From assembly GCA_963920705.1 (NCBI GenBank), contig CAWUCO010000284.1:308222-372221 (forward strand): a stretch of DNA of 64,000 bases. The letters run 5' to 3'. This stretch comes from Odiellus spinosus. Its lineage: Eukaryota > Arthropoda > Arachnida > Opiliones > Phalangiidae. A model generated the notes under the pieces. That model saw only the letters and a list, made by a program, of their open reading frames with translations. It was not told where the DNA came from and did no database searches. The stretch's first letter is position 1, and every line of letters begins with the position of its first letter. This document shows, one piece after another, positions 15,727 to 63,836 of the stretch. The translations under genes were made by a program, and so were the position numbers.

Positions 15727-18700
15727 AAACAAGAGTTTTGGAAAATCCGTTGAAAAACATGGAAAATATGGCCAATTAAAAAAAAACATCCAATATCAAA
15801 AAGCAAATTTTTAAAATCTGAAATTTGACTATTTTGATATTGTATGATTTCTTGAATTGGCCATATTTTTCTTGTTTTTCAACGGATTTCTGAAAACTCT
15901 TATTATTTAGACTGTCCATTAATGGCTCTTTCGAATGAATTTGGTTTTGTCTAAATTGCAACAACGTGACAAATATAAAATTGGTTAAAATTAAGCAAAA
16001 ACGCTTAAAAATCAAAGATTATTGGATTCAAATGGACACAAAACATTTGATTTTTAAGCTATTTAAACAAAATCAACATCAATCGAAAGAGCAAATATTA
16101 GTCTATCTCAAAAACAAGAGTTTTGGAAAATCCGTTGAAAAAAATGTAAAATATGGCCAATTCAAAAAAAAACATCTAATATCAAAAAGTGAATTTTTAA
16201 AATCTGAAATTTGACTATTTTGATATTGTATGATTTCTTGAACTGGCCATATTTTTCTTGTTTTTCAACGGATTTTTGAAAACTCTTATTATTTAGACTG
16301 CAAATTAATGGCTCTTTCGAATGACTTTGGTTTTGTCTAAATTGCCAAAACGTGACAAATATAAAATGGGTTAAAATTAAGCAAAAACGCTTAAAAATCA
16401 AAGATTATTGGATTCAAATGGACACATAACATTTCATTTTTAAGCTATTTAAACAAAATCAACACCAATCGAAAGAGCAAATATTGGTCTTTCTAAAAAA
16501 CAAGAGTTTTCGAAAATCCGTTGAAAACTATGGAAAATATGGCAAATTCAAAAAAAACATCTAATGTCAAAAAGCGAATTTTTAAAATCTGAAATTTGAC
16601 TATTTTGATATTGTATGATTTCTTGAATTGGCCATATTTTTCTTGTTTTTCAACGGATTTTTGAAAACTCATATTATTTAGACTGTTCATTAATGGCTCT
16701 TTCGAATGACTTTGGTTTTGTCTAAATTGAAAAACCGTGACAAATATAAAATTGGTTAAAATTAAGCAAAAACGCTTAAAAATCAAAGATTATTGGATTC
16801 AAATGGACACAAAACATTTGATTTTTAAGCTATTTAAACAAAATCAACATCAATCGAAAGAGCAAATATTGGTCTATCTCAAAAATAAGAGTTTTGGAAA
16901 ATCCGTTGAAAAACATGGAAAATATCGCCAATTCAAAAAAAAAAAACATCTAATATCAAAAAGCGAATTTTTAAAATCTGAAATTTGACTATTTTGATAT
17001 TGTATGATTTCTTGAATTGGCCATATTTTTCTTGTTTTTCAACGGATTTTTGAAAACTCATATTATTTAGACTGTTCATTAATGGCTCTTTCGAATGACT
17101 TTGGTTTTGTCTAAATTGCAAAAACGTGACAAATATAAAATTGGTTAAAATTAAGCAAAAACGCTTAAAAATCAAAGATTATTGGATTCAAATGGACACA
17201 AAACATTTGATTTTTAAGCTATTTAAACAAAATCAACATCAATCGAAAGAGCAAATATTGGTCTATCTCAAAAACAAGAGTTTTGGAAAATCCGTTGAAA
17301 AACATGGAAAATATCGCCAATTCAAAAAAAAACATCTAATATCAAAAAGCGAATTTTTAAAATCTGAAATTTGACTATTTTGATATTGTATGATTTCTTG
17401 AATTGGCCATATTTTTCTTGTTTTTCAACGGATTTTTGAAAACTCTTATTTTTAAGACTGTCCATTAATGGCTCTTTCGAATGACTTTGGTTTTGTCTAA
17501 ATTGCAAAAACGTGACAAATATAAAATTGGTTAAAATTAAGCAAAAACGTTTAAAAATGAAAGATTATTGAATTCAAATGGGCACAAAACATTTAATTTT
17601 TAAGCAATTTCGACAAAATCAACATCAATCGAAAGAACAGATATTGGTCTATCTCAAAAACAAGAGTTTTGGAAAATCCGTTGAAAAACATGGAAAATAT
17701 GGCCAATTAAAAAAAAACATCTAAGATCAAAAAGCGAATTTTTAAAATCTGAAATTTTACTATTTTGATATTGTATGATTTCTTGAATTGGCCATATTTT
17801 TCTTGTTTTTCAACGGATTTTGGAAAACTCATATTATTTAGACTTCATTAATGGCTCTTTCGAATGACTTTGGTTTTGTCTAAATTCCAAAAACGTGACA
17901 AATATAAAATTGGTTAAAATTAAGCAAAAACGCTTAAAAATCAAAGATTATTGGATTCAAATGGACACAAAACATTTGTTTTTTAAGCGATTTAGACAAA
18001 ATCTACACCAATCGAAAGAGCAAATATTCGTCTATCTAAAAAAACAAGAGTTTTGGAAAATCCGTTGAAAAACATGGAAAATATGGCCAATTCAAAAAAA
18101 AAAAATCTAATATCAAAAAGCGAATTTTTAAAATCTGAAATTTGACTATTTTGATATTGTATGATTTCTTGAATTGGCCATATTTTTCTTGTTTTTCAAC
18201 GGATTTTTGAAAACTCAAATTATTTAGACTGTTCATTAATGGCTCTTTCGAATGACTTTGGTTTTGTCTAAATTGCAAAAACGTGACAAATATAAAATTG
18301 GTTAAAATTAGGCAAAAAGTTAAAACGCTTAAAAATCCAAGATTATTGGATTCAAATGGACACAAAACATTTGTTTTTTAAGCGATTTAGACAAAATCTA
18401 CACCAATCGAAAGAGCAAATATTGGTCTATCTCAAAAACAAGAGTTTTGGAAAATCCGTTGAAAAACATGGAAAATATGGCCAATTCAAAAAAACATCTA
18501 ATATCAAAAAGCTAATTTTTAAAATCTGAAATTTGACTATTTTGATATTGTATGATTTCTTGAATTGGCCAAATTTTTCTTGTTTTTCAACGGATTTTTG
18601 AAAACTCATATTATTTAGACTGTTCATTAATGGCTGTTTCGAATGACTGGTTTTGTCTTAATTGCAAAAACGTGACAAATATAAAATTGGTTAAAATTAA

Positions 18701-21700
18701 GCAAAAACGCTTAAAAATGAAAGATTATTGAATTCAAATGGACACAAAACATTTGATTTTTAAGCGATTTAGACAAAATCAACACCAATCGAAAGACCAA
18801 AAATTGGTCTATCTCAAAAACAAGAGTTTTGGAAAATCCGTTGAAAAACATGAAAAATATGGCCAATTAAAAAAAAACATCTAATATCAAAAAGCGAATT
18901 TTTAAAATCTGAAATTTGACTATTTTGATATTGTATGATTTCTTGAATTGGCCATATTTTTCTTGTTTTTCAACGGATTTTTGAAAACTCTTATTATTTA
19001 GACTGTTCATTAATGGCTCTTTCGAATGACTTTAGTTTTGTCTAAATTGCAAAAACGTGAAAAATATAAAATTGGTTAAATTAAGCAAAAACGCTTAAAA
19101 ATGAAAGATTATTGAATTCAAATGGGCACAAAACATTTGATTTTTAAGCGATTTAGTCAAAATCAACACCAATCGAAAGAGCAAATATTGGTCTATCTAA
19201 AAAACAAGAATTTTGGAAAATCCGTTGAAAACTGGAAAATATGGACAATTCAAAAAACATCTAATATCAAAAAGCGAATTTTTAAAATCTGAAATTTTAC
19301 TATTTTGATATTGTATGATTTCTTGAACTGGCCATATTTTTCTTGTTTTTCAACGGATTTTTGAAAACTCATATTATTTAGACTCTTCATTAATGGCTCT
19401 TTCGAATGACTTTGGTTTTGTCTAAATTGCAAAAACGTGACAAATATAAAATTGGTTAAAATTAGGCAAAAACGCTTAAAAATGAAAGATTATTGAATTC
19501 AAATGGACACAAAACATTTGATTTTTAAGCGATTTAGACAAAATAAACACCAATCGAAAGAACAGATATTGGTCTATCTCAAAAACAAGAGTTTTGGAAA
19601 AATCCGTTGAAAAACATGGAAAATATGACCAATTAAAAAAAACATCTAATATCAAAAAGCGAATTTTTAAAATCTGAAATATGACTATTTTGATATTGTA
19701 TGATTTCTTGAATTGGCCATATTTTTCTTGTTTTTCAACGGATTTTTGAAAACTCATATTATTTAGACTTCAATAATGGCTCTTTCGAATGACTGGTTTT
19801 GTCTAAATTCCAAAAACGTGACAAATATAAAATTGGTTAAAATTAAGCAAAAACGCTTAAAAATCAAAGATTATTGGATTCAAATGGACACAAAACATTT
19901 GTTTTTTAAGCGATTTAGACAAAATCTACTCCAATCGAAAGAGCAAATATTCGTCTATCTAAAAAAACAAGAGTTTTGGAAAATCCGTTGAAAAACATGG
20001 AAAATATGGCCAATTCAAAAAAAAACATCTAATATCAAAAAGCGAATTTTTAAAATCTGAAATTTGACTATTTTGATATTGTATGATTTCTTGAATTGGC
20101 CATATTTTTCTTGTTTTTCAACGGATTTTTGAAAACTCATATTATTTAGACTGTTCATTAATGGCTCTTTCGAATGACTTTGGTTTTGTCTAAATTGCAA
20201 AAACGTGACAAATATAAAATTGGTTAAAATTAGGCAAAAAGTTAAAACGCTTAAAAATCCAAGATTATTGGATTCAAATGGACACAAAACATTTGTTTTT
20301 TAAGCGATTTAGTCAAAATCAACACCAATCGAAAGAGCAAATATTGGTCTATCTAAAAAACAAGAGTTTTGGAAAATCCGTTGAAAAACAAGAAAAATAT
20401 GGAAAATTCAAGAAATCATACAATATTAAATAGTCAAATTTCTGATTTTAAAAATTCGCTTTTTGATATTAGATGTTTTTTTGAATTGGCCATACTTTCC
20501 ATGTTTTTCAACGGATTTTCCAAAACTCTTGTTTTTTAGATAGACCTATATTTGCTCTTTCGATTGGTGTTGATTTTGTCTATATCGCTTAAAAATCAAA
20601 TGTTTTGTGTCCATTTGAAAAATATAAAATTGGTTAAATTAAGCAAAAACGCTTAAAAATGAAAGATTATTGAATTCAAATGGGCACAAAACATTTGATT
20701 TTTAAGCGATTTAGTCAAAATCAACACCAATCGAAAGAGCAAATATTGGTCTATCTAAAAAACAAGAGTTTTGGAAAATCCGTTGAAAACTGGAAAATAT
20801 GGACAATTCAAAAAACATCTAATATCAAAAAGCGAATTTTTAAAATCTGAAATTTTACTATTTTGATATTGTATGATTTCTTGAACTGGCCATATTTTTC
20901 TTGTTTTTCAACGGATTTTTGAAAACTCATATTATTTAGACTGTTCATTAATGGCTCTTTCGAATGACTTTGGTTTTGTCTAAATTGCAAAAACGTGACA
21001 AATATAAAATTGGTTAAAATTAGGCAAAAACGCTTAAAAATGAAAGATTATTGAATTCAAATGGACACAAAACATTTGTTTTTTAAGCGATTTAGACAAA
21101 ATCAACACCAATCGAAAGACCAAATATTGGTCTATCTCAAAAACAAGAGTTTTCGAAAATCCGTTGAAAAACATGGAAAATATGGCCAATTAAAAAAAAA
21201 CATCTAATATCAAAAAGCGATTTTTTAAAATCTGAAATTTGACTATTTTGATATTGTATGATTTCTAGAATTGGCCATATTTTTCTTGTTTTTCAACGGA
21301 TTTTTGAAAACTCTTATTATTTAGACTGTTCATTAATGGCTCTTTCGAATGACTTTAGTTTTGTCTAAATTGCAAAAACGTGAAAAATATAAAATTGGTT
21401 AAATTAAGCAAAAACGCTTAAAAATGAAAGATTATTGAATTCAAATGGACACAAAACATTTGATTTTTAAGCGATTTAGTCAAAATTAACACCAATCGAA
21501 AGAGCAAATATTGGTCTATCTAAAAAACAACAGTTTTGGAAAATCCGTTGAAAACTGGAAAATATGGACGATTCAAAAAACATCTAATATCAAAAAGCGA
21601 ATTTTTAAAATCTGAAATTTTACTATTTTGATATTGTATGATTTCTTGAACTGGCCATATTTTTCTTGTTTTTCAACGGATTTTTGAAAACTCATATTAT

Positions 21701-24000
21701 TTAGACTGTTCATTAATGGCTCTTTCGAATGACTTTGGTTTTGTCTAAATTGCAAAAACGTGACAATTATAAAATTGGTTAAAATTAAGCAAAAACGCTT
21801 AAAAATGAAAGATTATTGAATTCAAGTCAGCACAAAACATTTGATTTTTAAGCGATTTAGACAAAATCAACACCAATCGAAAGACAAAATATTGGTCTAT
21901 CTCAAAAACAAGAGTTTTTTAAAATCCGTTGAAAAACATGGAAAATATGGCCAATTCAAAAACACATCTAATATCAAAAAGCGAATTTTTAAAATCTGAA
22001 ATTTGACTATTTTGATATTGTATGATTTCTTGAACTGGCCATATTTTTCTTGTTTTTCAACGGATTTTTGAAAACTCATATTATTTAGACTGTTCATTAA
22101 TGGCTCTTTCGAATGACTTTAGTTTTGTCTTAATTGCAAAAACGTGACAAATATAAAATTGGTTAAAATTAAGCAAAAACGATTAAAAATCAAAGATTAT
22201 TGGATTCAAATGGACACAAAACATATGATTTTTAAGCGATATAGACAAAATCAACACCAATCGAAAGAGCAAATATAGGTCTATCTAAAAAACAAGAGTT
22301 TTGGAAAATCCGTTGAAAAACATGGAAAGTATGGCCTATTCAAAAAAACATCTAATATCAAAAAGCGAATTTTTAAAATCTGAAATTTGACTATTTAATA
22401 TTGTATGATTTCTTGAATTGGCCATATTTTTCTTGTTTTTCAACGGATTTTTGAAAACTCTTATTATTTAGACTGTCCTTTAATGGCTCTTTCGAATGAC
22501 TTTGGTTTTGTCTAAATTGCAAAAACGTGACAAATATAAAATTGGTTAAAATTAAGCAAAAACGCTTAAAAATCAAAGATTATTGAATTCAAATGGACAC
22601 AAAACATTTGATTTTTAAGCGATTTAGACAAAATCAACACCAATCGAAAGAGCAAATATTGGTCTATCTAAAAAACAAGAGTTTTGGAAAATCCGTTGAA
22701 AAACATGGAAAATTTGGCCAATTCAAAAAAGCATCAAATATCAAAAAACGAATTTTTAAAATCTGAAATTTGACTATTTAGATATTGTATGATTTCTTGA
22801 ATTGGCCATATTTTTCTTGTTTTTCAACGGATTTTTGAAAACTCTTATTATTTAGACTGTCCAATAATGGCTCTTTCGAATGACTTTGGTTTTGTCTACA
22901 TTTCAAAAACGTGACAAATATAAAATTGGTTAAAATTAAGCAAAAACGCTTAAAAATCAAAGATTATTGAATTCAAAGGGACACAAAACATTTGATTTTT
23001 AAGCGATTTAGACAAAATCAACACCAATCGAAAGAGCAAATATTGGTCTATCTAAAAAACCAGATTTTTAGAAAATCCGTTAAAAAACATGGAAAATATG
23101 GCCATTTCAAAAAAACATCTAATATCAAAAAATGAATTTTTAAAATCTGAAATTTGACTATTTTGATATTGTATGATTTCTTGAATTGGCCATATTTTTC
23201 TTGTTTTTCAACGGATTTTTGAAAACTCATATTATTTAGACTGTTCATTAATGGCTCTTTCGAATGACTGGTTTTGTCTTAATTGCAAAAACGTGACAAA
23301 TATAAAATTGGTTAAAATTAAGCAAAAACGCTTAAAAATCAAAGATTATGGATTCAAATGGACACAAAACATTTGATTTTTAAGCGATATAGACAAAATC
23401 AACACCAATCGAAAGAGCAAATATAGGTCTATCTAAAAAACAAGAGTTTTGGAAAATCCGTTGAAAAACATGGAAAGTATGGCCAATTCAAAAAAACATC
23501 TAATATCAAAAAGCGAATTTTTAAAATCAGAAATTTGACTATTTAATATTGTATGATTTCTTGAATTTTCCATATTTTTCTTGTTTTTCAACGGATTTTT
23601 GAAAACTCATATTATTTAAACTGTTCATTAATGGCTCTTTCGAATGACTGGTTTTGTCTTAATTGCAAAAACGTGACAAATATAAAATTGGTTAAAATTA
23701 AGCAAAAACGCTTAAAAATCAAAGATTATTGAATTCAAATGGACACAAAACATTTGATTTTTAAGCGATTTAGACAAAATCAACACCAATCGAAAGAGCA
23801 AATATTCGTCTATCTAAAAAAACAAGAGTTTTGGAAAATCCGTTGAAAAACATGGAAAATATGGCCAATTCAAAAAACATCAAATATCAAAAAGCGAATT
23901 TTTAAAATCTGAATCTTGACTATTTTGATATTGTATGATTTCTTGAATTGGCCATAATTTTCTTGTTTTTCAACGGATTTTTGAAAACTCTTATTATTTA
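15727..24000. repeat. Left, more diverged part of the satellite
   Basis: Units here differ more from each other and from the bulk: GCTATTTAAACAAAATC instead of GCGATTTAGACAAAATC in the first four units, variable lengths of the A-run after GGCCAATT, and many single changes. A variant with CAAAAAGTTAAAACGC recurs at about 18317 and 20239 (1922 bp, five units), and ATGGACAATTCAAAAAACAT-type units recur at 1558- and 765-bp steps. So higher-order copying also occurred here, but is older. Confidence 0.7.
20384..20617 (-). repeat. Flipped segment inside the satellite
   Basis: From the shared arm CCGTTGAAAAACA the text switches to the reverse complement of a normal unit: it reads AAGAAATCATACAATATTAA, then TTCGCTTTTTGATATTAGAT, GCTCTTTCGATTGGTGTTGA and TGTTTTGTGTCCATTTG, and at 20618 returns to the forward order with AAAAATATAAAATTGG. 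The flipped piece carries the changes of a variant that is common further right (CATACTTTCC for AAAGTATGG, TATATCGC for GCGATATA, a TTTAATATTG centre). Confidence 0.85.
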
Positions 24001-27000
24001 GACTGTCCATTAATGGCTCTTTCGAATGACTTTGGTTTTGTCTAAATTAAAAAAACGTGACAAATATAAAATTGGTTAAAATTAATAAAAAACGCTTAAA
24101 AATCAAAGATTATTGAATTCAAAGGGACACAAAACATTTGATTTTTAAGCGATTTAGACAAAATCTACACCAATCGAAAGAGCAAATATTCGTCTATCTA
24201 AAAAAACAAGAGTTTTGGAAAATCCGTTGAAAAACATGGAAAATATGGCCAATTCAAAAAAGCATCAAATATCAAAAAGCGAATTTTTAAAATCTGAATC
24301 TTGACTATTTTGATATTGTATGATTTCTTGAATTGGCCATATTTTTCTTGTTTTTCAACGGATTTTTGAAAACTCTTATTATTTAGACTGTCCATTAATG
24401 GCTCTTTCGAATGACTTTGGTTTTGTCTAAATTGCAAAAACGTGACAAATATAAAATTGGTTAAAATTAAGCAAAAACGCTTAAAAATCAAAGATTATTG
24501 AATTCAAATGGACACAAAACATTTGGTTTTTAAGCGATTTAGACAAAATCAACACCAATCGAAAGACAAAATATTGGTCTATCTAAAAAACAACAGTTTT
24601 GGAAAATCCGTTGAAAAACATGGAAAATATGGCCAATTGAAAAAAACATCTAATATCAAAAAGCGAATCTTTATAAATCTGAAATTTGACTAGTTTCATA
24701 TGGTATGATTTCTTGAATTGGCCATATTTTTCTTGTTTTTCAACGGATTTTTGAAAACTCTTATTATTTAGACTGTCCATTAATGGCTCTTTCGAATGAC
24801 TTTGGTTTTGTCTAAATTGCAAAAACGTGACAAATATAAAATTGGTTAAAATTAAGCAAAAACGCTTAAAAATCAAAGATTATTGAATTCAAATGGACAC
24901 AAAACATTTGATTTTTAAGCGATTTAGACAAAATCAACTCCATTCGAAAGAGCAAATATTGGTCTATCTAAAAAACAACAGTTTTGGAAAATCCGTTGAA
25001 AAACATGGAAAATATGGCCAATTGAAAAAAACATCTAATATCAAAAAGGGAATTTTTATAAATCTGAAATTTGACTAGTTTCATATGGTATGAAAATTTG
25101 ACTATTTTGATATTGTATGATTTCTTGAATTGGCCATATTTTTCTTGTTTTTCAACGGATTTTTGAAAACTCATATTATTTAGACTGTTCATTAATGGCT
25201 CTTTTGAATGACTGGTTTTGTCTTAATTGCAAAAACGTGACAAATATAAAATTGGTTAAAATTAAGCAAAAACGCTTAAAAATGAAAGATTATTGAATTC
25301 AAATGGGCACAAAACATTTGATTTTTAAGCGATTTAGACAAAATCAACACCAATCGAAAGACCAAATATTGGTCTATTTCAAAAACAAGAGTTTTGGAAA
25401 ATCCGTTGAAAAACATGGAAAATATGGCCAATTCAAAAAACATCAAATATCCAAAAAGCGAATTTTTAAAATCTGAATCATGACTATTTTGATATTGTAT
25501 GATTTCTTGAATTGGCCATAATTTTCTTGTGTTTCAACGGATTTTTGAAAACTCTTATTATTTAGACTGTCCATTAATGGCTCTTTCGAATGACTTTGGT
25601 TTTGTCTAAATTGCAAAAACGTGACAAATATAAAATTGGTTAAAATTAATAAAAAACGCTTAAAAATCAAAGATTATTGAATTCAAATGGACACAAAACA
25701 TTTGATTTTTAAGCGATTTAGACAAAATCAACTCCAATCGAAAGAGCAAATATTGGTCTATCTAAAAAACAAGAGTTTTTGAAAATCCGTTGAAAAACAT
25801 GGAAAATATGGCCAATTGAAAAAAAACATCTAATATCAAAAAGCGAATTTTTATAAATCTGAAATTTGACTATTTTGATATTGTATGATTTCTTGAATTG
25901 GCCATATTTTTCTTGTTTTTCAACGGATTTTTGAAAACTCTTATTATTTAGACTGTCCATTAATGGCTCTTTCGAATGACTTTGGTTTTGTCTAAATTGC
26001 AAAAACGTGACAAAAATAAAATTGGTTAAAATTAAGCAAAAACGCTTAAAAATCAAAGATTATTGAATTCAAATGGACACAAAACATTTGGTTTCTAAGC
26101 GATTTAGACAAAATCAACACCAATCGAAAGACAAAATATTGGTCTATCTCAAAAACAAGAGTTTTTGAAAATCCGTTGAAAAACATGGAAAATATGGCCA
26201 ATTCAAAAAAACATCAAATATCAAAAATGAATTTTTAAAATCTGAAATTTGACTATTTTGATATTGTATGATTTCTTGAATTGGCCATATTTTTCTTGTT
26301 TTTCAACGGATTTTTGAAAACTCTTATTATTAAGACTGTCCATTAATGGTTCTTTCGAATGACTTTGGTTTTGTATAAATTGCAAAAACGTGACAAATAT
26401 AAAATTGGTTAAAATTAAGCAAAAACGTTTAAAAATCAAATATTATTGAATTCAAAGGGACACAAAACATTTGAATTTTAAGCGATTTAGACAAAATCAA
26501 CACCAATCGAAAGAGCAAATATTGGTCTATCTAAAAAACAACAGTTTTGGAAAATCCGTTGAAAAACATGGAAAATATGGCCAATTGAAAAAAAACATCT
26601 AATATCAAAAAGCGAATTTTTATAAATCTGAAATTTGACTAGTTTCATATGGTATGATTTCTTGAATTGGCCATATTTTTCTTGTTTTTCAACGGATTTT
26701 TGAAAACTCTTATTATTTAGACTGTCCATTAATGGCTCTTTCGAATGACTTTGGTTTTGTCTAAATTGCAAAAACGTGACAAAAATAAAATTGGTTAAAA
26801 TTAAGCAAAAACGCTTAAAAATCAAAGATTATTGAATTCAATGGGACACAAAACATTTGATTTTTAAGCGATTTAGACAAAATCAACACCAATCGAAAGA
26901 GCAAATATTGGTCTATCTAAAAAACCAGATTTTTAGAAAATCCGTTAAAAAACATGGAAAATATGGCCATTTCAAAAAAACATCTAATATCAAAAAATGA

Positions 27001-43470: not shown

Positions 43471-44427
43471 ATTATTGAATTCAAATGGACACAAAACATT
43501 TGGTTTCTAAGCGATTTAGACAAAATCAACACCAATCTAAAGACAAAATATTGGTCTATCTCAAAAACAAGAGTTTTTGAAAATCCGTTGAAAAACATGG
43601 AAAATATGGCCAATTCAAAAAAACATCAAATATCAAAAATGAATTTTTAAAATCTGAAATTTGACTATTTTGATATTGTATGATTTCTTGAATCGGCCAT
43701 ATTTTTCTTGTTTTTCAACGGATTTTTGAAAACTCTTATTATTAAGACTGTCCATTAATGGTTCTTTCGAATGACTGGTTTTGTCTTAATTGCAAAAACG
43801 TGACAAATATAAAATTGGTTAAAATTAAGCAAAAACGTTTAAAAATCAAAGATTATTGAATTCAAAGGGACACAAAACATTTGATTTTTAAGCGATTTAG
43901 ACAAAATCAACACCAATCGAAAGAGCAAATATTGGTCTATCTAAAAAACCAGATTTTTAGAAAATCCGTTAAAAAACATGGAAAATATGGCCATTTCAAA
44001 AAACATTTAATATCAAAAAATGAATTTTTAAAATCTGAAATTTGACTATTTTGATATTGTATGATTTCTTGAATTGGCCATATTTTTCTTGTTTTTCAAC
44101 GGATTTTTGAAAACTCATATTATTTAGACTGTTCATTAATGGCTCTTTCGAATGACTGGTTTTGTCTTAATTGCAAAAACGTGACAAATATAAAATTGGT
44201 TAAAATTAAGCAAAAACGTTTAAAAATCAAAGATTATTGAATTCAAAGGGACACAAAACATTTGATTTTTAAGCGATTTAGACAAAATCAACACCAATCG
44301 AAAGAGCAAATATTGGTCTATCTAAAAAACCAGATTTTTAGAAAATCCGTTAAAAAACATGGAAAATATGGCCATTTCAAAAAAACATCTAATATCAAAA
44401 AATGAATTTTTAAAATCTGAAATTTGA

Positions 44428-50400: not shown

Positions 50401-53400
50401 AAGCGATTTAGACAAAATCAACACCAATCGAAAGAGCAAATATTCGTCTATCTAAAAAAACAAGAGTTTTGGAAAATCCGTTGAAAAACATGGAAAATAT
50501 GGCCAATTCAAAAAAGCATCAAATATAAAAAAACGAATTTTTAAAATCTGAAATTTGACTATTTTGATATTGTATGATTTCTTGAATTGGCCATATTTTT
50601 CTTGTTTTTCAACGGATTTTTGAAAACTCTTATTATTTAGACTGTCCATTAATGGCTCTTTCGAATGACTTTGGTTTTGTCTAAATTGCAAAAACGTGAC
50701 AAATATAAAATTGGTTAAAATTAAGCAAAAACGCTTAAAAATCAAAGATTATTGAATTCAAATGGACACAAAACATTTGATTTTTAAGCGATTTAGACAA
50801 AATCAACTACAATCGAAAGAGCAAATATTGGTCTATCTAAAAAACAACAGTTTTGGAAAATCCGTTGAAAAACATGGAAAATATGGCCAATTGAAAAAAA
50901 CATCTAATATCAAAAAGCGAATTTTTATAAATCTGAAATTTGACTAGTTTCATATGGTATGATTTCTTGAATTGGCCATATTTTTCTTGTTTTTCAACGG
51001 ATTTTTGAAAAATCATATTATTTAGACTGTCCATTAATGGCTCTTTCGAATGAATGGTTTTGTTATAATTGCAAAAACGTGACAAATATAAAATTGGTTA
51101 AAATTAAGCAAAAACGCTTAAAAATCAAAGATTATTGGATTCAAATGGACACAAAACATGATTTTTAAGCGATATAGACAAAATCAACACCAATTGAAAG
51201 AGCAAATATAGGTCTATCTAAAAAACAAGAGTTTTGGAAAATCCGTTGAAAAACATGGAAAGTATGGCCTATTCAAAAAAACATCTAATATCAAAAAGCG
51301 AATTTTTAAAATCTGAAATTTGACTATTTAATATTGTATGATTTCTTGAATTGGCCATATTTTTCTTGTTTTTCAACGGATTTTTGAAAACTCTTATTAT
51401 TTAGACTGTCCATTAATGGCTCTTTCGAATGACTTTGGTTTTGTCTACATTGCAAAAACGTGACAAATATAAAATTGGTTAAAATTAAGCAAAAACGCTT
51501 AAAAATCAAAGATTATTGGATTCAAATGGACACAAAACATTTGATTTTTAAGCGATATAGACAAAATCAACACCAATCGATAGAGCAAATATAGGTCTAT
51601 CTAAAAAACAAGAGTTTTGGAAAATCCGTTGAAAAACATGGAAAGTATGGCCAATTCAAAAAAACATCTAATATCAAAAAGCGAATTTTTAAAATCAGAA
51701 ATTTGACTATTTAATATTGTATGATTTCTTGAATTTTCCATATTTTTCTTGTTTTTCAACGGATTTTTGAAAACTCATATTATTTAAACTGTTCATTAAT
51801 GGCTCTTTCGAATGACTGGTTTTGTCTTAATTGCAAAAACGTGACAAATATAAAATTGGTTAAAATTAAGCAAAAACGCTGTAAAGTCAAAGATTATTGA
51901 ATTCAAATGGACACAAAACATTTGATTTTTAAGCGATTTAGACAAAATCAACACCAATCGAAAGAGCAAATATTCGTCTATCTAAAAAAACAAGAGTTTT
52001 GGAAAATCCGTTGAAAAACATGGAAAATATGGCCAATTCAAAAAAGCATCAAATATAAAAAAACGAATTTTTAAAATCTGAAATTTGACTATTTAGATAT
52101 TGTATGATTTCTTGAATTGGCCATATTTTTCTTGTTTTTCAACGGATTTTTGAAAACTCTTATTATTTAGACTGTCCATTAATGGCTCTTTCGAATGACT
52201 TTGGTTTTGTCTACATTGCAAAAACGTGACAAATATAAAATTTATTTAAAATTAAGCTAAAACGCTTAAAAATCAAAGATTATTGAATTCAAATGGACAC
52301 AAAACATTTGATTTTTAAGCGATCTAGACAAAATCAACACCAATCAAAAGACCAAATATCGGTCTATCTCAAAAACAAGAGTTTTGGAAAATCCGTTGAA
52401 AAACATGGAAAATATGGCCAATTCAAAAAACATCAAATATCAAAAAGCGAATTTTTAAAATCTGAATCTTGACTATTTTGATATTGTATGATTTCTTGAA
52501 TTGGCCATAATTTTCTTGTTTTTCAACGGATTTTTGAAAACTCTTATTATTTAGACTGTCCATTAATGGCTCTTTCGAATGACTTTGGTTTTGTCTAAAT
52601 TGCAAAAACGTGACAAATATAAAATTGGTTAAAATTAATAAAAAACGCTTAAAAATCAAAGATTATTGAATTCAAAGGGACACAAAACATTTGATTTTTA
52701 AGCGATTTAGACAAAATCTACACATATCGAAAGAGCAAATATTCGTCTATCTAAAAAAACAAGAGTTTTGGAAAATCCGTTGAAAAACATGGAAAATATG
52801 GCCAATTCAAAAAAGCATCAAATATCAAAAAGCTAATTTTTAAAATCTGAATCTTGACTATTTTGATATTGTATGATTTCTTGAATTGGCCATATTTTTC
52901 TTGTTTTTCAACGGATTTTTGAAAACTCTTATTATTTAGACTGTCCATTAATGGCTCTTTCGAATGACTTTGGTTTTGTCTAAATTGCAAAAACGTGACA
53001 AATATAAAATTGGTTAAAATTAAGCAAAAACGCTTAAAAATCAAAGATTATTGAATTCAAATGGACACAAAACATTTGATTTTTAAGCGATTTAGACAAA
53101 ATCAACTACAATCGAAAGAGCAAATATTGGTCTATCTAAAAAACAACAGTTTTGGAAAATCCGTTGAAAAACATGGAAAATATGGCCAATTGAAAAAAAC
53201 ATCTAATATCAAAAAGCGAATTTTTATAAATCTGAAATTTGACTAGTTTCATATGGTATGATTTCTTGAATTGGCCATATTTTTCTTGTTTTTCAACGGA
53301 TTTTTGAAAAATCATATTATTTAGACTGTCCATTAATGGCTCTTTCGAATGAATGGTTTTGTTATAATTGCAAAAACGTGACAAATATAAAATTGGTTAA

Positions 53401-56400
53401 AATTAAGCAAAAACGCTTAAAAATCAAAGATTATTGGATTCAAATGGACACAAAACATATGATTTTTAAGCGATATAGACAAAATCAACACCAATCGAAA
53501 GAGCAAATATAGGTCTATCTAAAAAACAAGAGTTTTGGAAAATCCGTTGAAAAACATGGAAAGTATGGCCTATTCAAAAAAACATCTAATATCAAAAAGC
53601 AAATTTTTAAAATCTGAAATTTGACTATTTAATATTGTATGATTTCTTGAATTGGCCATATTTTTCTTGTTTTTCAACGGATTTTTGAAAACTCTTATTA
53701 TTTAGACTGTCCATTAATGGCTCTTTCGAATGACTTTGGTTTTGTCTACATTGCAAAAACGTGACAAGTATAAAATTGGTTAAAATTAAGCAAAAACGCT
53801 TAAAAATCAAAGATTATTGGATTCAAATGGACACAAAACATTTGATTTTTAAGCGATATAGACAAAATCAACACCAATCGATAGAGCAAATATAGGTCTA
53901 TCTAAAAAACAAGAGTTTTGGAAAATCCGTTGAAAAACATGGAAAGTATGGCCAATTCAAAAAAACATCTAATATCAAAAAGCGAATTTTTAAAATCAGA
54001 AATTTGACTATTTAACATTGTATGATTTCTTGAATTTTCCATATTTTTCTTGTTTTTCAACGGATTTTTGAAAACTCATATTATTTAAACTGTTCATTAA
54101 TGGCTCTTTCGAATGACTGGTTTTGTCTTAATTGCAAAAACGTGACAAATATAAAATTGGTTAAAATTAAGCAAAAACGCTGTAAAGTCAAAGATTATTG
54201 AATTCAAATGGACACAAAACATTTGATTTTTAAGCGATTTAAACAAAATCAACACCAATCGAAAGAGCAAATATTCGTCTATCTAAAAAAACAAGAGTTT
54301 TGGAAAATACGTTGAAAAACATGGAAAATATGGCCAATTCAAAAAAGCATCAAATATCAAAAAACGAATTTTTAAAATCTGAAATTTGACTATTTAGATA
54401 TTGTATGATTTCTTGAATTGGCCATATTTTTCTTGTTTTTCAACGGATTTTTGAAAACTCTTATTATTTAGACTGTCCATTAATGGCTCTTTCGAATGAC
54501 TTTGGTTTTGTCTACATTGCAAAAACGTGACAAATATAAAATTGGTTAAAATTAAGCAAAAACACTTAAAAATCAAAGATTATTGGATTCAAATGGACAC
54601 AAAACATTTGATTTTTAAGCGATATAGACAAAATCAACACCAATCGATAGAGCAAATATAGGTCTATCTAAAAAACAAGAGTTTTGGAAAATCCGTTGAA
54701 AAACATGGAAAGTATGGCCAATTCAAAAAAACATCTAATATCAAAAAGCGAATTTTTAAAATCAGAAATTTGACTATTTAATATTGTATGATTTCTTGAA
54801 TTTTCCATATTTTTCTTGTTTTTCAACGGATTTTTGAAAACTCATATTATTTAAACTGTTCATTAATGGCTCTTTCGAATGACTGGTTTTGTCTTAATTG
54901 CAAAAACGTGACAAATATAAAATTGGTTAAAATTAAGCAAAAACGCTGTAAAGTCAAAGATTATTGAATTCAAATGGACACAAAACATTTGATTTTTAAG
55001 CGATTTAAACAAAATCAACACCAATCGAAAGAGCAAATATTCGTCTATCTAAAAAAACAAGAGTTTTGGAAAATCCGTTGAAAAACATGGAAAATATGGC
55101 CAATTCAAAAAACATCAAATATCAAAAAGCGAATTTTTAAAATCTGAATCTTGACTATTTTGATATTGTATGATTTCTTGAATTGGCCATAATTTTCTTG
55201 TTTTTCAACGGATTTTTGAAAACTCTTATTATTTAGACTGTCCATTAATGGCTCTTTCGAATGACTTTGGTTTTGTCTAAATTGCAAAAACGTGACAAAT
55301 ATAAAAGTGGTTAAAATTAATAAAAAACGCTTAAAAATCAAAGATTATTGAATTCAAAGGGACACAAAACATTTGATTTTTAAGCGATTTAGACAAAATC
55401 TACACCAATCGAAAGAGCAAATATTCGTCTATCTAAAAAAACAAGAGTTTTGGAAAATCCGTTGAAAAACATGGAAAATATGGCCAATTCAAAAAAGCAT
55501 CAAATATCAAAAAGCGAATTTTTAAAATCTGAATCTTGACTATTTTGATATTGTATGATTTCTTGAATTGGCCATATTTTTCTTGTTTTTCAACGGATTT
55601 TTGAAAACTCTTATTATTTAGACTGTCCATTAATGGCTCTTTCGAATGACTTTGGTTTTGTCTAAATTGCAAAAACGTGACAAATATAAAATTGGTTAAA
55701 ATTAAGCAAAAACGCTTAAAAATCAAAGATTATTGAATTCAAATGGACACAAAACATTTGGTTTTTAAGCGATTTAGACAAAATCAACACCAATCGAAAG
55801 ACAAAATATTGGTCTATCTAAAAAACAACAGTTTTGGAAAATCCGTTGAAAAACATGGAAAGTATGGCCAATTCAAAAAAACATCTAATATCAAAAAGCG
55901 AATTTTTAAAATCAGAAATTTGACTATTTAATATTGTATGATTTCTTGAATTTTCCATATTTTTCTTGTTTTTCAACGGATTTTTGAAAACTCATATTAT
56001 TTAAACTGTTCATTAATGGCTCTTTCGAATGACTGGTTTTGTCTTAATTGCAAAAACGTGACAAATATAAAATTGGTTAAAATTAAGCAAAAACGCTGTA
56101 AAGTCAAAGATTATTGAATTCAAATGGACACAAAACATTTGATTTTTAAGCGATTTAGACAAAAATCAACACCAATCGAAAGAGCAAATATTCGTCTATC
56201 TAAAAAAACAAGAGTTTTGGAAAATCCGTTGAAAAACATGGAAAATATGGCCAATTCAAAAAAGCATCAAATATCAAAAAACGAATTTTTAAAATCTGAA
56301 ATTTGACTATTTAGATATTGTATGATTTCTTGAATTGGCCATATTTTTCTTGTTTTTCAACGGATTTTTGAAAACTCTTATTATTTAGACTGTCCATTAA

Positions 56401-59400
56401 TGGCTCTTTCGAATGACTTTGGTTTTGTCTACATTGCAAAAACGTGACAAATATAAAATTTATTTAAAATTAAGCAAAAACGGTTAAAACTCAAAGATTA
56501 TTGAATTCAAATGGACACAAAACATTTGATTTTTAAGCGATCTAGACAAAATCAACACCAATCAAAAGACCAAATATCGGTCTATCTCAAAAACAAGAGT
56601 TTTGGAAAATCCGTTGAAAAACATGGAAAATATGGCCAATTCAAAAAACATCAAATATCAAAAAGCGAATTTTTAAAATCTGAATCTTGACTATTTTGAT
56701 ATTGTATGATTTCTTGAATTGGCCATAATTTTCTTGTTTTTCAACGGATTTTTGAAAACTCTTATTATTTAGACTGTCCATTAATGGCTCTTTCGAATGA
56801 CTTTGGTTTTGTCTAAATTGCAAAAACGTGACAAATATAAAATTGGTTAAAATTAATAAAAAACGCTTAAAAATCAAAGATTATTGAATTCAAAGGGACA
56901 CAAAACATTTGATTTTTAAGCGATTTAGACAAAATCTACACCAATCGAAAGAGCAAATATTCGTCTATCTAAAAAAACAAGAGTTTTGGAAAATCCGTTG
57001 AAAAACATGGAAAATATGGCCAATTCAAAAAAGCATCAAATATCAAAAAGCGAATTTTTAAAATCTGAATCTTGACTATTTTGATATTGTATGATTTCTT
57101 GAATTGGCCATATTTTTCTTGTTTTTCAACGGATTTTTGAAAACTCTTATTATTTAGACTGTCCATTAATGGCTCTTTCGAATGACTTTGGTTTTGTCTA
57201 AATTGCAAAAACGTGACAAATATAAAATTGGTTAAAATTAAGCAAAAACGCTTAAAAATCAAAGATTATTGAATTCAAATGGACACAAAACATTTGGTTT
57301 TTAAGCGATTTAGACAAAATCAACACCAATCGAAAGACAAAATATTGGTCTATCTAAAAAACAACAGTTTTGGAAAATCCGTTGAAAAACATGGAAAGTA
57401 TGGCCAATTCAAAAAAACATCTAATATCAAAAAGCGAATTTTTAAAATCAGAAATTTGACTATTTAATATTGTATGATTTCTTGAATTTTCCATATTTTT
57501 CTTGTTTTTCAACGGATTTTTGAAAACTCATATTATTTAAACTGTTCATTAATGGCTCTTTCGAATGACTGGTTTTGTCTTAATTGCAAAAACGTGACAA
57601 ATATAAAATTGGTTAAAATTAAGCAAAAACGCTGTAAAGTCAAAGATTATTGAATTCAAATGGACACAAAACATTTGATTTTTAAGCGATTTAGACAAAA
57701 TCAACACCAATCGAAAGAGCAAATATTCGTCTATCTAAAAAAACAAGAGTTTTGGAAAATCCGTTGAAAAACATGGAAAATATGGCCAATTCAAAAAAGC
57801 ATCAAATATCAAAAAACGAATTTTTAAAATCTGAAATTTGACTATTTAGATATTGTATGATTTCTTGAATTGGCCATATTTTTCTTGTTTTTCAACGGAT
57901 TTTTGAAAACTCTTATTATTTAGACTGTCCATTAATGGCTCTTTCGAATGACTTTGGTTTTGTCTACATTGCAAAAACGTGACAAATATAAAATTGGTTA
58001 AAATTAAGCAAAAACGCTTAAAAATCAAAGATTATTGGATTCAAATGGACACAAAACATTTGATTTTTAAGCGATATAGACAAAATCAACACCAATCGAT
58101 AGAGCAAATATAGGTCTATCTAAAAAACAAGAGTTTTGGAAAATCCGTTGAAAAACATGGAAAGTATGGCCAATTCAAAAAAACATCTAATATCAAAAAG
58201 CGAATTTTTAAAATCAGAAATTTGACTATTTAATATTGTATGATTTCTTGAATTTTCCATATTTTTCTTGTTTTTCAACGGATTTTTGAAAACTCATATT
58301 ATTTAAACTGTTCATTAATGGCTCTTTCGAATGACTGGTTTTCTCTTAATTGCAAAAACGTGACAAATATAAAATTGGTTAAAATTAAGCAAAAACGTGA
58401 CAAATATAAAATTGGTTAAAATTAAGCAAAAACGCTTAAAAATCAAAGATTATTGGATTCAAATGGACACAAAACATTTGATTTTTAAGCGATATAGACA
58501 AAATCAACACCAATCGATAGAGCAAATATAGGTCTATCTAAAAAACAAGAGTTTTGGAAAATCCGTTGAAAAACATGGAAAATATGGCCAATTGAAAAAA
58601 CATCTAATATCAAAAAGCGAATTTTTATAAATCTGAAATTTGACTAGTTTCATATGGTATGATTTCTTGAATTGGCCATATTTTTCTTGTTTTTCAACGG
58701 ATTTTTGAAAACTCTTATTATTTAGACTGTCCATTAATGGCTCTTTCGAATGACTTTGGTTTTGTCTACATTGCAAAAACGTGACAAATATAAAATTGGT
58801 TAAAATTAAGCAAAAACGCTTAAAAATCAAAGATTATTGGATTCAAATGGACACAAAACATTTGATTTTTAAGCGATATAGACAAAATCAACACCAATCG
58901 ATAGAGCAAATATAGGTCTATCTAAAAAACAAGAGTTTTGGAAAATCCGTTGAAAAACATGGAAAGTATGGCCAATTCAAAAAAACATCTAATATCAAAA
59001 AGCGAATTTTTAAAATCAGAAATTTGACTATTTAATATTGTATGATTTCTTGAATTTTCCATATTTTTCTTGTTTTTCAACGGATTTTTGAAAACTCATA
59101 TTATTTAAACTGTTCATTAATGGCTCTTTCGAATGACTGGTTTTGTCTTAATTGCAAAAACGTGACAAATATAAAATTGGTTAAAATTAAGCAAAAACGC
59201 TGTAAAGTCAAAGATTATTGAATTCAAATGGACACAAAACATTTGATTTTTAAGCGATTTAGACAAAATCAACACCAATCGAAAGAGCAAATATTCGTCT
59301 ATCTAAAAAAACAAGAGTTTTGGAAAATCCGTTGAAAAACATGGAAAATATGGCCAATTCAAAAAAGCATCAAATATCAAAAAACGAATTTTTAAAATCT

Positions 59401-62400
59401 GAAATTTGACTATTTAGATATTGTATGATTTCTTGAATTGGCCATATTTTTCTTGTTTTTCAACGGATTTTTGAAAACTCTTATTATTTAGACTGTCCAT
59501 TAATGGCTCTTTCGAATGACTTTGGTTTTGTCTACATTGCAAAAACGTGACAAATATAAAATTGGTTAAAATTAAGCAAAAACGCTTAAAAATCAAAGAT
59601 TATTGGATTCAAATGGACACAAAACATTTGATTTTTAAGCGATATAGACAAAATCAACACCAATCGATAGAGCAAATATAGGTCTATCTAAAAAACAAGA
59701 GTTTTGGAAAATCCGTTGAAAAACATGGAAAATATGGCCAATTCAAAAAACATCAAATATCTAAAAGCGAATTTTTAAAATCAGAATCTTGACTATTTTG
59801 ATATTGTATGATTTCTTGAATTGGCCATAATTTTCTTGTTTTTCAACGGATTTTTGAAAACTCTTATTATTTAGACTGTCCATTAATGGCTCTTTCGAAT
59901 GACTTTGGTTTTGTCTAAATTGCAAAAACGTGACAAATATAAAATTGGTTAAAATTAATAAAAAACGCTTAAAAATCAAAGATTATTGAATTCAAAGGGA
60001 CACAAAACATTTGATTTTTAAGCGATTTAGACAAAATCTACACCAATCGAAAGAGCAAATATTCGTCTATCTAAAAAAACAACAGTTTTGGAAAATCCGT
60101 TGAAAAACATGGAAAATATGGCCAATTCAAAAAAGCATCAAATATCAAAAAGCGAATTTTTAAAATCTGAATCTTGACTATTTTGATATTGTATGATTTC
60201 TTGAATTGGCCATATTTTTCTTGTTTTTCAACGGATTTTTGAAAACTCATATTATTTAGACTGTTCATTAATGGCTCTTTTGAATGACTGGTTTTGTCTT
60301 AATTGCAAAAACGTGACAAATATAAAATTGGTTAAAATTAAGCAAAAACGCTTAAAAATGAAAGATTATTGAATTCAAATGGTCACAAAACATTTGATTT
60401 TTAAGCGATTTAGACAAAATCAACTCCAATCGAAAGAGCAAATATTGGTCTATCTAAAAAAGAACAGTTTTGGAAAATCCGTTGAAAAACATGGAAAATA
60501 TGGCCAATTGAAAAAAACATCTAATATCAAAAAGCGAATTTTTATAAATCTGAAATTTGACTAGTTTCATATGGTATGATTTCTTGAATTGGCCATATTT
60601 TTCTTGTTTTTCAACGGATTTTTGAAAACTCTTATTATTTAGACTGTCCATTAATGGCTCTTTCGAATGACTTTGGTTTTGTCTAAATTGCAAAAACGTG
60701 ACAAATATAAAATTGGTTAAAATTAAGCAAAAACGCTTAAAAATCAAAGATTATTGAATTCAAATGGACACAAAACATTTGGTTTTTAAGCGATTTAGAC
60801 AAAATCAACACCAATCGAAAGACAAAATATTGGTCTATCTAAAAAAACAACAGTTTTGGAAAATCCGTTGAAAAACATGGAAAATATGGCCAATTGAAAA
60901 AAACATCTAATATCAAAAAGCGAATTTTTATAAATCTGAAATTTGACTAGTTTCATATGGTATGATTTCTTGAATTGGACATATTTTTCTTGTTTTTCAA
61001 CGGATTTTTGAAAACTCTTATTATTTAGACTGTCCATTAATGGCTCTTTCGAATGACTTTGGTTTTGTCTAAATTGCAAAAACGTGACAAATATAAAATT
61101 GGTTAAAATTAAGCAAAAACGCTTAAAAATCAAAGATTATTGAATTCAAATGGACACAAAACATTTGATTTTTAAGCGATTTAGACAAAATCAACTACAA
61201 TCGAAAGAGCAAATATTGGTCTATCTAAAAAACAACAGTTTTGGAAAATCCGTTGAAAAACATGGAAAATATGGCCAATTGAAAAAAACATCTAATATCA
61301 AAAAGCGAATTTTTATAAATCTGAAATTTGACTAGTTTCATATGGTATGATTTCTTGAATTGGCCATATTTTTCTTGTTTTTCAACGGATTTTTGAAAAA
61401 TCATATTATTTAGACTGTCCATTAATGGCTCTTTCGAATGAATGGTTTTGTTATAATTGCAAAAACGTGACAAATATAAAATTGGTTAAAATTAAGCAAA
61501 AACGCTTAAAAATCAAAGATTATTGGATTCAAATGGACACAAAACATATGATTTTTAAGCGATATAGACAAAATCAACACCAATCGAAAGAGCAAATATA
61601 GGTCTATCTAAAAAACAAGAGTTTTGGAAAATCCGTTGAAAAACATGGAAAGTATGGCCTATTCAAAAAAACATCTAATATCAAAAAGCGAATTTTTAAA
61701 ATCTGAAATTTGACTATTTAATATTGTATGATTTCTTGAATTGGCCGTATTTTTCTTGTTTTTCAACGGATTTTTGAAAACTCTTATTATTTAGACTGTC
61801 CATTAATGGCTCTTTCGAATGACTTTGGTTTTGTCTACATTGCAAAAACGTGACAAATATAAAATTGGTTAAAATTAAGCAAAAACGCTTAAAAATCAAA
61901 GATTATTGGATTCAAATGGACACAAAACATTTGATTTTTAAGCGATATAGACAAAATCAACACCAATCGATAGAGCAAATATAGGTCTATCTAAAAAACA
62001 AGAGTTTTGGAAAATCCGTTGAAAAACATGGAAAGTATGGCCAATTCAAAAAAACATCTAATATCAAAAAGCGAATTTTTAAAATCAGAAATTTGACTAT
62101 TTAATATTGTATGATTTCTTGAATTTTCCATATTTTTCTTGTTTTTCAACGGATTTTTGAAAACTCATATTATTTAAACTGTTCATTAATGGCTCTTTCG
62201 AATGACTGGTTTTCTCTTAATTGCAAAAACGTGACAAATATAAAATTGGTTAAAATTAAGCAAAAACGCTGTAAAGTCAAAGATTATTGAATTCAAATGG
62301 ACACAAAACATTTGATTTTTAAGCGATTTAGACAAAATCAACACCAATCGAAAGAGCAAATATTCGTCTATCTAAAAAAACAAGAGTTTTGGAAAATCCG

Positions 62401-62700
62401 TTGAAAAACATGGAAAATATGGCCAATTCAAAAAAGCATCAAATATCAAAAAACGAATTTTTAAAATCTGAAATTTGACTATTTAGATATTGTATGATTT
62501 CTTGAATTGGCCATATTTTTCTTGTTTTTCAACGGATTTTTGAAAACTCTTATTATTTAGACTGTCCATTAATGGCTCTTTCGAATGACTTTGGTTTTGT
62601 CTACATTGCAAAAACGTGACAAATATAAAATTGGTTAAAATTAAGCAAAAACGCTTAAAAATCAAAGATTATTGAATTCAAATGGACACAAAACATTTGA
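44428..62700. repeat. Higher-order repeat domain 2 of the satellite
   Basis: The variant ACGCTGTAAAGTCAAAG occurs at about 46134, 48050, 50349, 51879, 54180, 54946, 56096, 57632, 59200 and 62269. The gaps (1916, 2299, 1530, 2301, 766, 1150, 1536, 1568, 3069) correspond to 5, 6, 4, 6, 2, 3, 4, 4 and 8 units. A second marker, GAATGGTTTTGTTATAATTG, recurs at about 45304, 47221, 49521, 51051, 53350 and 61439 with gaps of 1917, 2300, 1530, 2299 and 8089 bp, matching the first marker where both are present. Two isolated copies of the CTGTAAAG marker lie at 28731 and 32206. Confidence 0.8.
58352..58425. repeat. 37-bp tandem duplication inside one satellite unit
   Basis: GCAAAAACGTGACAAATATA and the following bases up to AAATTAA occur twice in a row, starting at 58352 and 58389. 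It explains exactly why the marker gap across it is 1568 bp instead of about 1531. Confidence 0.9.
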
Positions 62701-63836
62701 TTTTTAAGCGATCTAGACAAAATCAACACCAATCAAAAGACCAAATATCGGTCTATCTCAAAAAGAGTTTTGGAAAATCCGTTGAAAAACATGGAAAATA
62801 TGGCCAATTCAAAAAACATCAAATATCAAAAAGCGAATTTTTAAAATCTGAATCTTGACTATTTTGATATTGTATGATTTCTTGAATTGGCCATAATTTT
62901 CTTGTTTTTCAACGGATTTTTGAAAACTCTTATTATTTAGACTGTCCATTAATGGCTCTTTCGAATGACTTTGGTTTTGTCTAAATTGCAAAAACGTGAC
63001 AAATATAAAATTGGTTAAAATTAAGCAAAAACGCTTAAAAATCAAAGATTATTGAATTCAAATGGACACAAAACATTTGATTTTTAAGCGATTTAGACAA
63101 AATCAACTCCAATCGAAAGAGCAAATATTGGTCTATCTAAAAAACAACAGTTTTGGAAAATCCGTTGAAAAACATGGAAAATATGGCCAATTGAAAAAAA
63201 CATCTAATATCAAAAAGCGAATTTTTATAAATCTGAAATTTGACTAGTTTCATATGGTATGATTTCTTGAATTGGCCATATTTTTCTTGTTTTTCAACGG
63301 ATTTTTGAAAACTCATTATTTAGACTGTCCATTAATGGCTCTTTCGAATGACTGGTTTTGTCTTAATTGCAAAAACGTGACAAATATAAAATTGGTTAAA
63401 ATTAAGCAAAAACGCTTAAAAATCAAAGATTATTGAATTCAAATGGACACAAAACATTTGATTTTTAAGCGATTTAGACAAAATCAACTCCAATCGAAAG
63501 AGCAAATATTGGTCTATCTAAAAAACAACAGTTTTGGAAATTCCGTTGAAAAACATGGAAAATATGGCCAATTGAAAAAAACATCTAATATCAAAAAGCG
63601 AATTTTTATAAATCTGAAATTTGACTAGTTTCATATGGTATGATTTCTTGAATTGGCCATATTTTTCTTGTTTTTCAACGGATTTTTGAAAACTCTTATT
63701 ATTTAGACTGTCCATTAATGGCTCTTTCGAATGACTTTGGTTTTGTCTAAATTGCAAAAACGAGACAAATATTAAATTGGTTAAAATTTAGCAAAAACGC
63801 TTAAAAATCAAAGATTATTGGATTCAAATGGACACA

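What the first reader, a model, noticed from the sequence alone, without database searches (positions are those of the whole stretch)
15727..63836. Satellite whose repeating unit is itself an inverted dimer
Most satellites are head-to-tail. Here each roughly 385-bp unit is arm A plus a diverged reverse complement A', so the array alternates orientation every 170-215 bp, giving about 250 potential stems. A' carries about 45 bp that A lacks. The dimer was evidently formed once and then amplified as a block, because A resembles A in other units more than it resembles its own A'. Such DNA can extrude cruciforms and, if transcribed, fold into serial hairpins.
Basis: seen in the sequence. Interest (0 to 1): 0.8.

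Follow-up and report, generated by a model that had tools for sequence, protein, structure and literature searches.

The report
Satellite of flippable palindromic half-units
A common repeated DNA of an arthropod is built from two near-palindromes per repeat; in this window the repeats are neatly ordered, but at other places in the same genome single half-repeats lie back to front without losing the beat of the array.

Summary
Window 15,721-63,836 is an array of about 125 units (consensus 384 bp), each an arm A plus a diverged inverted A': neighbouring A and A' are 77% identical, A-A 95%, A'-A' 96%, and A' has a 45-bp block that A lacks. Satellites with inverted subunits are known (Tribolium), so the window alone is a new member of a known kind. 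The larger finding lies outside it. The unit is two quasi-palindromic modules, D1 and D2. Here 249 of 250 modules face one way. Elsewhere in the genome arrays keep the D1-D2 alternation and the register while single modules are flipped; in some stretches nearly half of neighbours disagree (18 of 40, 24 of 51). Of 139 chimeric arms, 137 break in or beside short stretches where A and A' are identical, so the flips look like homology-dependent exchange between opposite-facing arms. Of five positions not chosen by match, two were scrambled and three ordered. Exact-match counts suggest that the family makes up about 7% of the 443-Mb assembly. A foldback transposon (about 15 near-identical copies) carries satellite units in 8 of 9 copies fetched. 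Function is untested; the route of exchange and the assembly need raw reads.

The parts
15721..63836 (+). Satellite array, about 125 units of 384 bp (D1+ D2+), left edge set by eye from the sequence
   Evidence: first and last module calls 15742 and 63836
15742..15889 (+). First D1 module with its two flanking inverted sites (dyad 1 inside)
63670..63836 (+). Last, incomplete D2 module; the array ends here against unrelated sequence
20380..20618 (-). Inverted tract: flipped D1 followed by an A arm in place of A'; enters at the 18-bp block and returns at a short microhomology near the D2 centre
   Evidence: caller places the flipped D1 at 20373-20519
20900..21285 (+). Example unit used for the folding test

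Best explanation
A large satellite family whose unit is two quasi-palindromic modules. Because each module resembles its own reverse complement, the whole array resembles its own reverse complement in register (about 70-74%). Opposite-facing arms can therefore pair and exchange at the short blocks where A and A' are identical (two of 18 bp, one of 9 bp), either within one chromatid, which flips a module, or between arrays that face opposite ways. Each exchange leaves a chimeric A/A' arm and re-orients modules without changing the period. Ordinary unequal exchange then amplifies re-oriented stretches into higher-order repeats and scrambled domains, seen so far only in the young, widely shared part of the family; this window's array is a diverged, private one that stayed ordered. 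Shown: modules, register, chimeric arms and breakpoints, ordered and scrambled stretches, subfamilies. Inferred: that recombination or template switching made the junctions, and by which route. No cellular function is needed for this.
For: In-register flips: the gaps at orientation changes are 276 and 107 bp, together 383. Breakpoints of 139 chimeric arms: 97 in the 18-bp block TGTTTTTCAACGGATTTT, 27 in the 18-bp block TTGAATTGGCCATATTTT, 13 in or beside the 9-bp block AAAACTCTT, 2 elsewhere (the fit left out 2 of 23 diagnostic columns). Modules keep one A and one A' arm in 697 of 699 scored cases. Two chimeric 30-mers occur 7,235 and 1,389 times genome-wide with 0 in reversed controls. Two of five positions not chosen by match are scrambled, 18 of 40 neighbours discordant in each. 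In three of nine loci opposite-facing D2 modules are as alike as same-facing ones.
Against: In six of nine loci same-facing D2 modules are 0.4-1.1 points more alike, and junction arms are 95-98% identical between loci, so few founding flips spread by amplification would also fit. 61 of 129 runs outside the window have an even number of modules, which one simple inversion cannot give. Equal breakpoints at both ends of odd runs (Fisher P 0.003, distinct runs) vanish under within-locus permutation (P 0.19). Three of five unselected positions show no flip at all. The nine main loci were found with a query that contains a flipped tract, which favours flips. Several array contigs have lengths in round thousands (6235000, 2288000, 678000), a sign of scaffold cutting.
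Confidence: 0.65

Rival explanations
1. Founder mosaics only: a handful of flips happened once, and today's scrambled stretches descend from them by amplification and ordinary exchange between like-facing units; no flipping goes on now.
For: Junction arms are 95-98% identical between loci; one class (A inside, A' outside, first 18-bp block) appears 26 times and its mirror class once; higher-order repeats carry fixed flips (L020, L021, L027, L039).
Against: At least six junction classes exist, and the isolated tract in this window is an extra event with a different right end.
Confidence: 0.3
2. Site-specific inversion, like a shufflon: a recombinase acts on the inverted 18-bp sites that flank each module.
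For: Identical inverted 18-bp blocks flank each module and 97 of 139 junctions fall in one of them.
Against: 27 junctions fall in a second 18-bp block, 13 in or beside a 9-bp block and 2 elsewhere; the window tract returns at a microhomology.
Confidence: 0.03
3. Assembly artefact: the flips come from mis-assembled repeats.
For: Satellites are hard to assemble; array contigs with round-thousand lengths; no reads were available.
Against: Flips keep the register, have defined breakpoints, recur in higher-order repeats on several contigs, and chimeric 30-mers number in the thousands.
Confidence: 0.07
4. Selected structure: dyad symmetry is kept because hairpins or cruciforms serve heterochromatin or centromeres; orientation does not matter to it.
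For: Folding potential far above shuffles; modules stay hetero-armed (697 of 699); a similar idea is argued for Tribolium.
Against: No exact CENP-B core in the window; the identity blocks are not significantly more conserved than random blocks in the window units (P 0.078); no chromatin or RNA data.
Confidence: 0.15
5. The satellite was born inside the foldback transposon and later escaped, rather than being captured by it.
For: Eight of nine fetched copies have a satellite core; foldback elements gave rise to a satellite in Drosophila virilis.
Against: The copy with long ORFs has no satellite module; the copies are recent (TIRs 98-100% identical) and their D2 modules are only 91-93% like arrays elsewhere (searches give 89-93%); no TIR in this window or in the other loci then held outside L029-L033.
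Confidence: 0.2

Closest known systems
Tribolium brevicornis 1,061-bp satellite (about 470-bp inverted segments; seen only as cited in PMC13081366)
   Same: Major satellite whose monomer holds two long inversely oriented subunits
   Different: Unit here is 384 bp with arms of 169 and 215 bp, and modules are re-oriented in register; the original paper was not seen, so such re-orientation there is not excluded
Tribolium madens TmSat2 and macro-dyad arrays (PMC13081366, passages read)
   Same: Monomer with about 300-bp imperfect inverted repeats; orientation changes inside arrays; chromosome-scale abundance
   Different: The passages describe inverted subarrays of several kilobases; here single modules of 114 or 236 bp flip
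Trichogramma brassicae 385-bp satellite (80-bp inverted repeats; cited in PMC13081366)
   Same: Nearly the same unit length, inverted repeats inside the unit
Tetris foldback transposon of Drosophila virilis (PMC4079207, abstract and passages)
   Same: Foldback element with long TIRs, tandem repeats in the TIRs, 8-10 bp target duplications, link to a satellite
   Different: There TIR repeats seeded the satellite; here the satellite lies in the core and the TIR repeat (149 bp) is another sequence
TCAST transposon-like elements of Tribolium castaneum (PMC3411249, passages)
   Same: Major satellite also found within dispersed TIR-bearing elements
   Different: There satellite segments are part of the TIRs around a unique core; here the satellite is the core between non-satellite TIRs

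Membership tests
Satellite with inversely oriented subunits (T. brevicornis kind) | Long tandem array of one repeat unit | tested here: met
Satellite with inversely oriented subunits (T. brevicornis kind) | Unit made of two long related subunits in opposite orientation, beyond chance | tested here: met
Satellite with inversely oriented subunits (T. brevicornis kind) | Abundant in the genome | tested here: met
   47,732 and 59,998 exact 26-mers
Satellite with inversely oriented subunits (T. brevicornis kind) | Location in (peri)centromeric heterochromatin | not testable with these tools
   no cytology or chromatin data
Macro-dyad satellite arrays (Tribolium) | Kilobase-long subarrays meeting in opposite orientation | tested here: inconclusive
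   C261 is '+' at 1.0 Mb and '-' at 5.6 Mb, but no junction was seen; L027 has recurrent inverted stretches of six modules, about 1.1 kb
Site-specific inversion system (shufflon-like) | All breakpoints at one recombinase site | tested here: not met
   three or more breakpoint intervals
CENP-B-box satellite | CENP-B core motif (recalled) | tested here: not met
   0 exact matches in the window; mismatches not tried
Foldback element of the Mutator superfamily (dispersed copies) | Long TIRs with internal tandem repeats | tested here: met
   TIR of about 1 kb with 149-bp repeats
Foldback element of the Mutator superfamily (dispersed copies) | 8-10 bp target site duplication | tested here: met
   Seven copies looked at: 9 of 9 bases in four, 8 of 9 in one, only 7 bp in one, one with a damaged right end
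Foldback element of the Mutator superfamily (dispersed copies) | Mutator-type transposase | tested here: inconclusive
   597-aa ORF in L036 without any Pfam match up to E 10

The most novel reading that the evidence does not exclude
An orientation-blind satellite: because its unit is made of quasi-palindromic modules, arrays facing opposite ways can recombine in register, so homogenisation runs across both strands and turns arrays into mosaics of flipped modules. Strand polarity, which head-to-tail satellites keep, is here a free, heritable and possibly still changing variable.
Probability: 0.45. Interest if true: 0.75.

Novelty: new variant of a known kind. Interest (0 to 1): 0.58.

Why it matters
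Each module's orientation is a readable bit that does not depend on point mutations. It would let one count exchange events along satellite arrays and compare individuals or species, which is hard in head-to-tail arrays. It also gives a concrete test of whether long dyad symmetries in arthropod satellites are selected or a by-product of recombination, and shows a transposon carrying satellite units into chromosome-scale contigs that otherwise have few.

Tried and rejected
Gene conversion of single arms into perfect palindromes as the main route: not supported, 697 of 699 modules with both arms scored have one A and one A' arm, one is A-A and one unclear.

One simple inversion per flip: not sufficient, 61 of 129 runs outside the window are even-numbered. 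Equal breakpoints in odd runs (Fisher P 0.0004 on all runs, 0.003 on distinct runs) looked supportive but vanished under within-locus permutation (P 0.19), so this is not used as evidence.

'Scrambled is young, ordered is old': weakened by the unselected sample, since L041, L042 and L044 are ordered and belong to the young group. What stands is that the seven loci with 30% or more discordant neighbours are all in the young group.

CENP-B box and site-specific inversion: not supported. Higher conservation of the four identity blocks: not significant (P 0.078). Pfam classification of the 597-aa ORF: nothing. Host: TTAGG telomere-type repeats and mitochondrial ORFs in an order that I read as the ancestral insect one (recall) point to an arthropod. 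My notebook calls the COI protein hemipteran; that was recall and I do not rely on it. The notebook counts (97 of 98) come from the stricter caller and are replaced.

Not in print, as far as searched: eight searches listed no paper that I could recognise as reporting in-register flipping of single satellite modules; I judged by titles and abstract starts, and read passages of three papers only; the library holds open-licence papers.

Full report
What was given and what holds. The window (G000:C275:308222-372221, of a 443-Mb assembly in 286 contigs) contains a 48-kb array with a period of 383-385 bp. GC is 31-39% in the 2-kb steps before 14 kb and 26-28% in those inside the array. The 384-bp consensus resembles its own reverse complement (70-74% over long cyclic alignments), far beyond 100 shuffles (268 against mean 53.1, maximum 86). 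Arm A is 169 bp, arm A' 215 bp (medians), and A' has a 45-bp block that A lacks. Neighbouring A and A' are 77.3% identical, A-A 94.6%, A'-A' 95.9%.

A better description of the unit. A and A' share two identical 18-bp stretches, TTGAATTGGCCATATTTT and TGTTTTTCAACGGATTTT, 3 bp apart, and shorter ones. Cut at the second, the unit is two modules: D1 (114 bp in the consensus, around one dyad) and D2 (236 bp, around the other). The window has 125 of each and 249 of 250 face the same way. The exception, at 20,380-20,618, enters through the 18-bp block, carries a flipped D1 and an A arm where A' should be, and returns at a short microhomology near the D2 centre. It looks like a template switch or a conversion tract (inference).

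Other arrays. The consensus matched nine 10-kb loci with whole units in both directions and gaps of 276 and 107 bp, together one unit, so flips are in register. The module caller (best orientation ahead by at least 43 bits in every module of the window and L019-L027; no module called in a base-shuffled array or in the left flank) shows three states. Ordered: this window, L024 on C8 (52 of 52 modules '-'), L040 on C5 (41 of 41 '+'). Ordered with recurrent flips in higher-order repeats: L020, L021, L027 (match spacing about 2,680 bp). Scrambled: L019, L022, L023, L025, L026 with 23 of 50, 24 of 51, 24 of 52, 17 of 52 and 26 of 51 neighbours discordant, against 2 of 249 in the window. L039 shows a four-module higher-order repeat. 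The D1-D2 alternation is not quite without exception: L019 has two D1-D1 contacts and L042 four places with an 86-bp piece between two D1.

Bias and an unselected sample. L019-L027 came from matches to window 20000-20800, which holds the flipped tract, so they favour flips; L039 and L040 were also chosen. I therefore fetched five positions not chosen by match, on four contigs known to bear the family. All five were satellite: two scrambled (18 of 40 neighbours each), three without a flip (0 of 41, 0 of 36, 0 of 40). Genome-wide exact counts do not depend on that choice: the A-type 26-mer occurs 47,732 times and the A'-type 59,998 times, the two chimeric 30-mers 7,235 and 1,389 times, the A-A 30-mer 43,250 times; reversed-pattern controls are 0. 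In my 710 arms these strings detect 193 of 352 arms that are A-type at that place and 266 of 358 that are A'-type, and 36 of 38 and 14 of 59 of the two chimera classes. From this I infer 80,000-88,000 units, 31-34 Mb, about 7% of the assembly, and roughly 8% of arms chimeric at that block. The detection rates come from the biased sample, so these are rough.

How the flips are made. Of 710 arms in the window and L019-L027, 571 are pure and 139 chimeric (70 of one kind, 69 of the other). Breakpoints: 97 in TGTTTTTCAACGGATTTT, 27 in TTGAATTGGCCATATTTT, 13 in or beside the 9-bp block AAAACTCTT, 2 elsewhere. They follow A/A' identity, which argues for homologous exchange and against a recombinase with one site. 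Modules keep one A and one A' arm in 697 of 699 cases. Two routes fit: crossing over between inverted arms of one chromatid, or exchange between arrays facing opposite ways, which pair in register because the array resembles its reverse complement. Even-numbered runs (61 of 129 outside the window) need the second route or several events, and the breakpoint test does not separate the two. Junction arms are 95-98% alike between loci, so a small number of founders, amplified later, is possible.

Subfamilies. D2 modules of loci on C6, C27, C100, C104, C112, C132, C157, C197 and C261 are 95-98% identical to each other, whereas those of this window, C5 and C8 are 88-93% identical to them (up to 14 or 12 modules sampled per locus). 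The seven loci with 30% or more discordant neighbours are all in the first group, which also has ordered stretches (L041, L042, L044). Within loci, facing sorts little with sequence: opposite- and same-facing D2 modules are 97.4 and 97.3% alike in L019, 97.3 and 97.0 in L023, 96.3 and 96.3 in L025, but in six other loci same-facing ones are 0.4-1.1 points more alike.

A transposon that carries the satellite. All listed A-type matches on C1-C4 except one fragment at C1:1800197 lie in five mobile elements: near-identical TIRs of about 1 kb or more (about 527 bp unique plus a 149-bp tandem repeat) and a core in which '-' units meet '+' units. Target duplications in seven copies: 9 of 9 bases in four, 8 of 9 in one, 7 bp in one, none readable in one with a damaged end. 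Pairing the TIR matches (40 of 58 candidates scored) gives 15 elements of 3.6-10.7 kb with TIRs 98-100% identical to the query (my pairing). Of nine fetched, eight have satellite modules; the ninth, on C7 (L036/L037), has none and bears long ORFs, one with a weak UCH match below Pfam's cut-off and one of 597 aa without Pfam match. I read the eight as derivatives that captured satellite units (inference). No TIR match lies in this window.

Comparison with print. Inverted-subunit satellites are known from Tribolium brevicornis and T. madens and, with short repeats, from Trichogramma brassicae; T. madens arrays also change orientation over kilobases (PMC13081366, passages). Foldback elements tied to satellites are known from Drosophila virilis Tetris (PMC4079207, abstract and passages), and TCAST transposon-like elements from T. 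castaneum (PMC3411249, passages). My eight searches listed no report that I recognised of in-register flipping of single modules. I file the window as an inverted-subunit satellite and the genome-wide behaviour as a new variant of that kind.

Limits. No reads, no related species, no chromatin or RNA data; the host is an arthropod of undetermined order; positions on chromosomes are known only from capped listings; several array contigs have round-thousand lengths, so the assembly of these arrays deserves doubt.

Noticed in passing
L029-L035, L038 and L036/L037 (C1, C2, C3, C4, C13, C16, C7): Foldback transposon family with about 1-kb TIRs holding 149-bp tandem repeats and a satellite core; one copy instead has long ORFs (597 aa without Pfam match; 398 aa with a weak UCH match).
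   Followed up: partly
L029-L033, L038 cores (for example L030:1809-1928): A 120-bp non-satellite insert with a long perfect hairpin sits beside D2 modules in most fetched transposon copies, probably a small mobile element.
   Followed up: no
L028:2214-3026 (C1 near 1.80 Mb): Tandem repeat of about 23 bp next to a short satellite fragment.
   Followed up: no
L042 (C261:5600000-5607999): An 86-bp piece in place of a full D2 between two D1 modules, at four places, as a recurrent variant of an ordered array.
   Followed up: no
G000:C17 (near 1.1, 3.0, 3.1, 4.2 and 4.4 Mb): Several COX1-like pieces in a nuclear contig, apparently mitochondrial insertions.
   Followed up: no
G000:C6:612 to beyond 2.98 Mb: Matches to the satellite run from the very start of this 24.9-Mb contig over about 3 Mb (capped lists).
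   Followed up: partly
G000:C1 interstitial sites, e.g. 1939677 and 21473613: TTAGG arrays also lie far from the contig end, besides the long one near 35.43 Mb.
   Followed up: no
window 10511-12604, 13379-13906, 14291-14653: ORFs in the left flank that look transposon-related: one with a weak DUF4218 match below the cut-off, two related to each other by eye and without Pfam match.
   Followed up: partly
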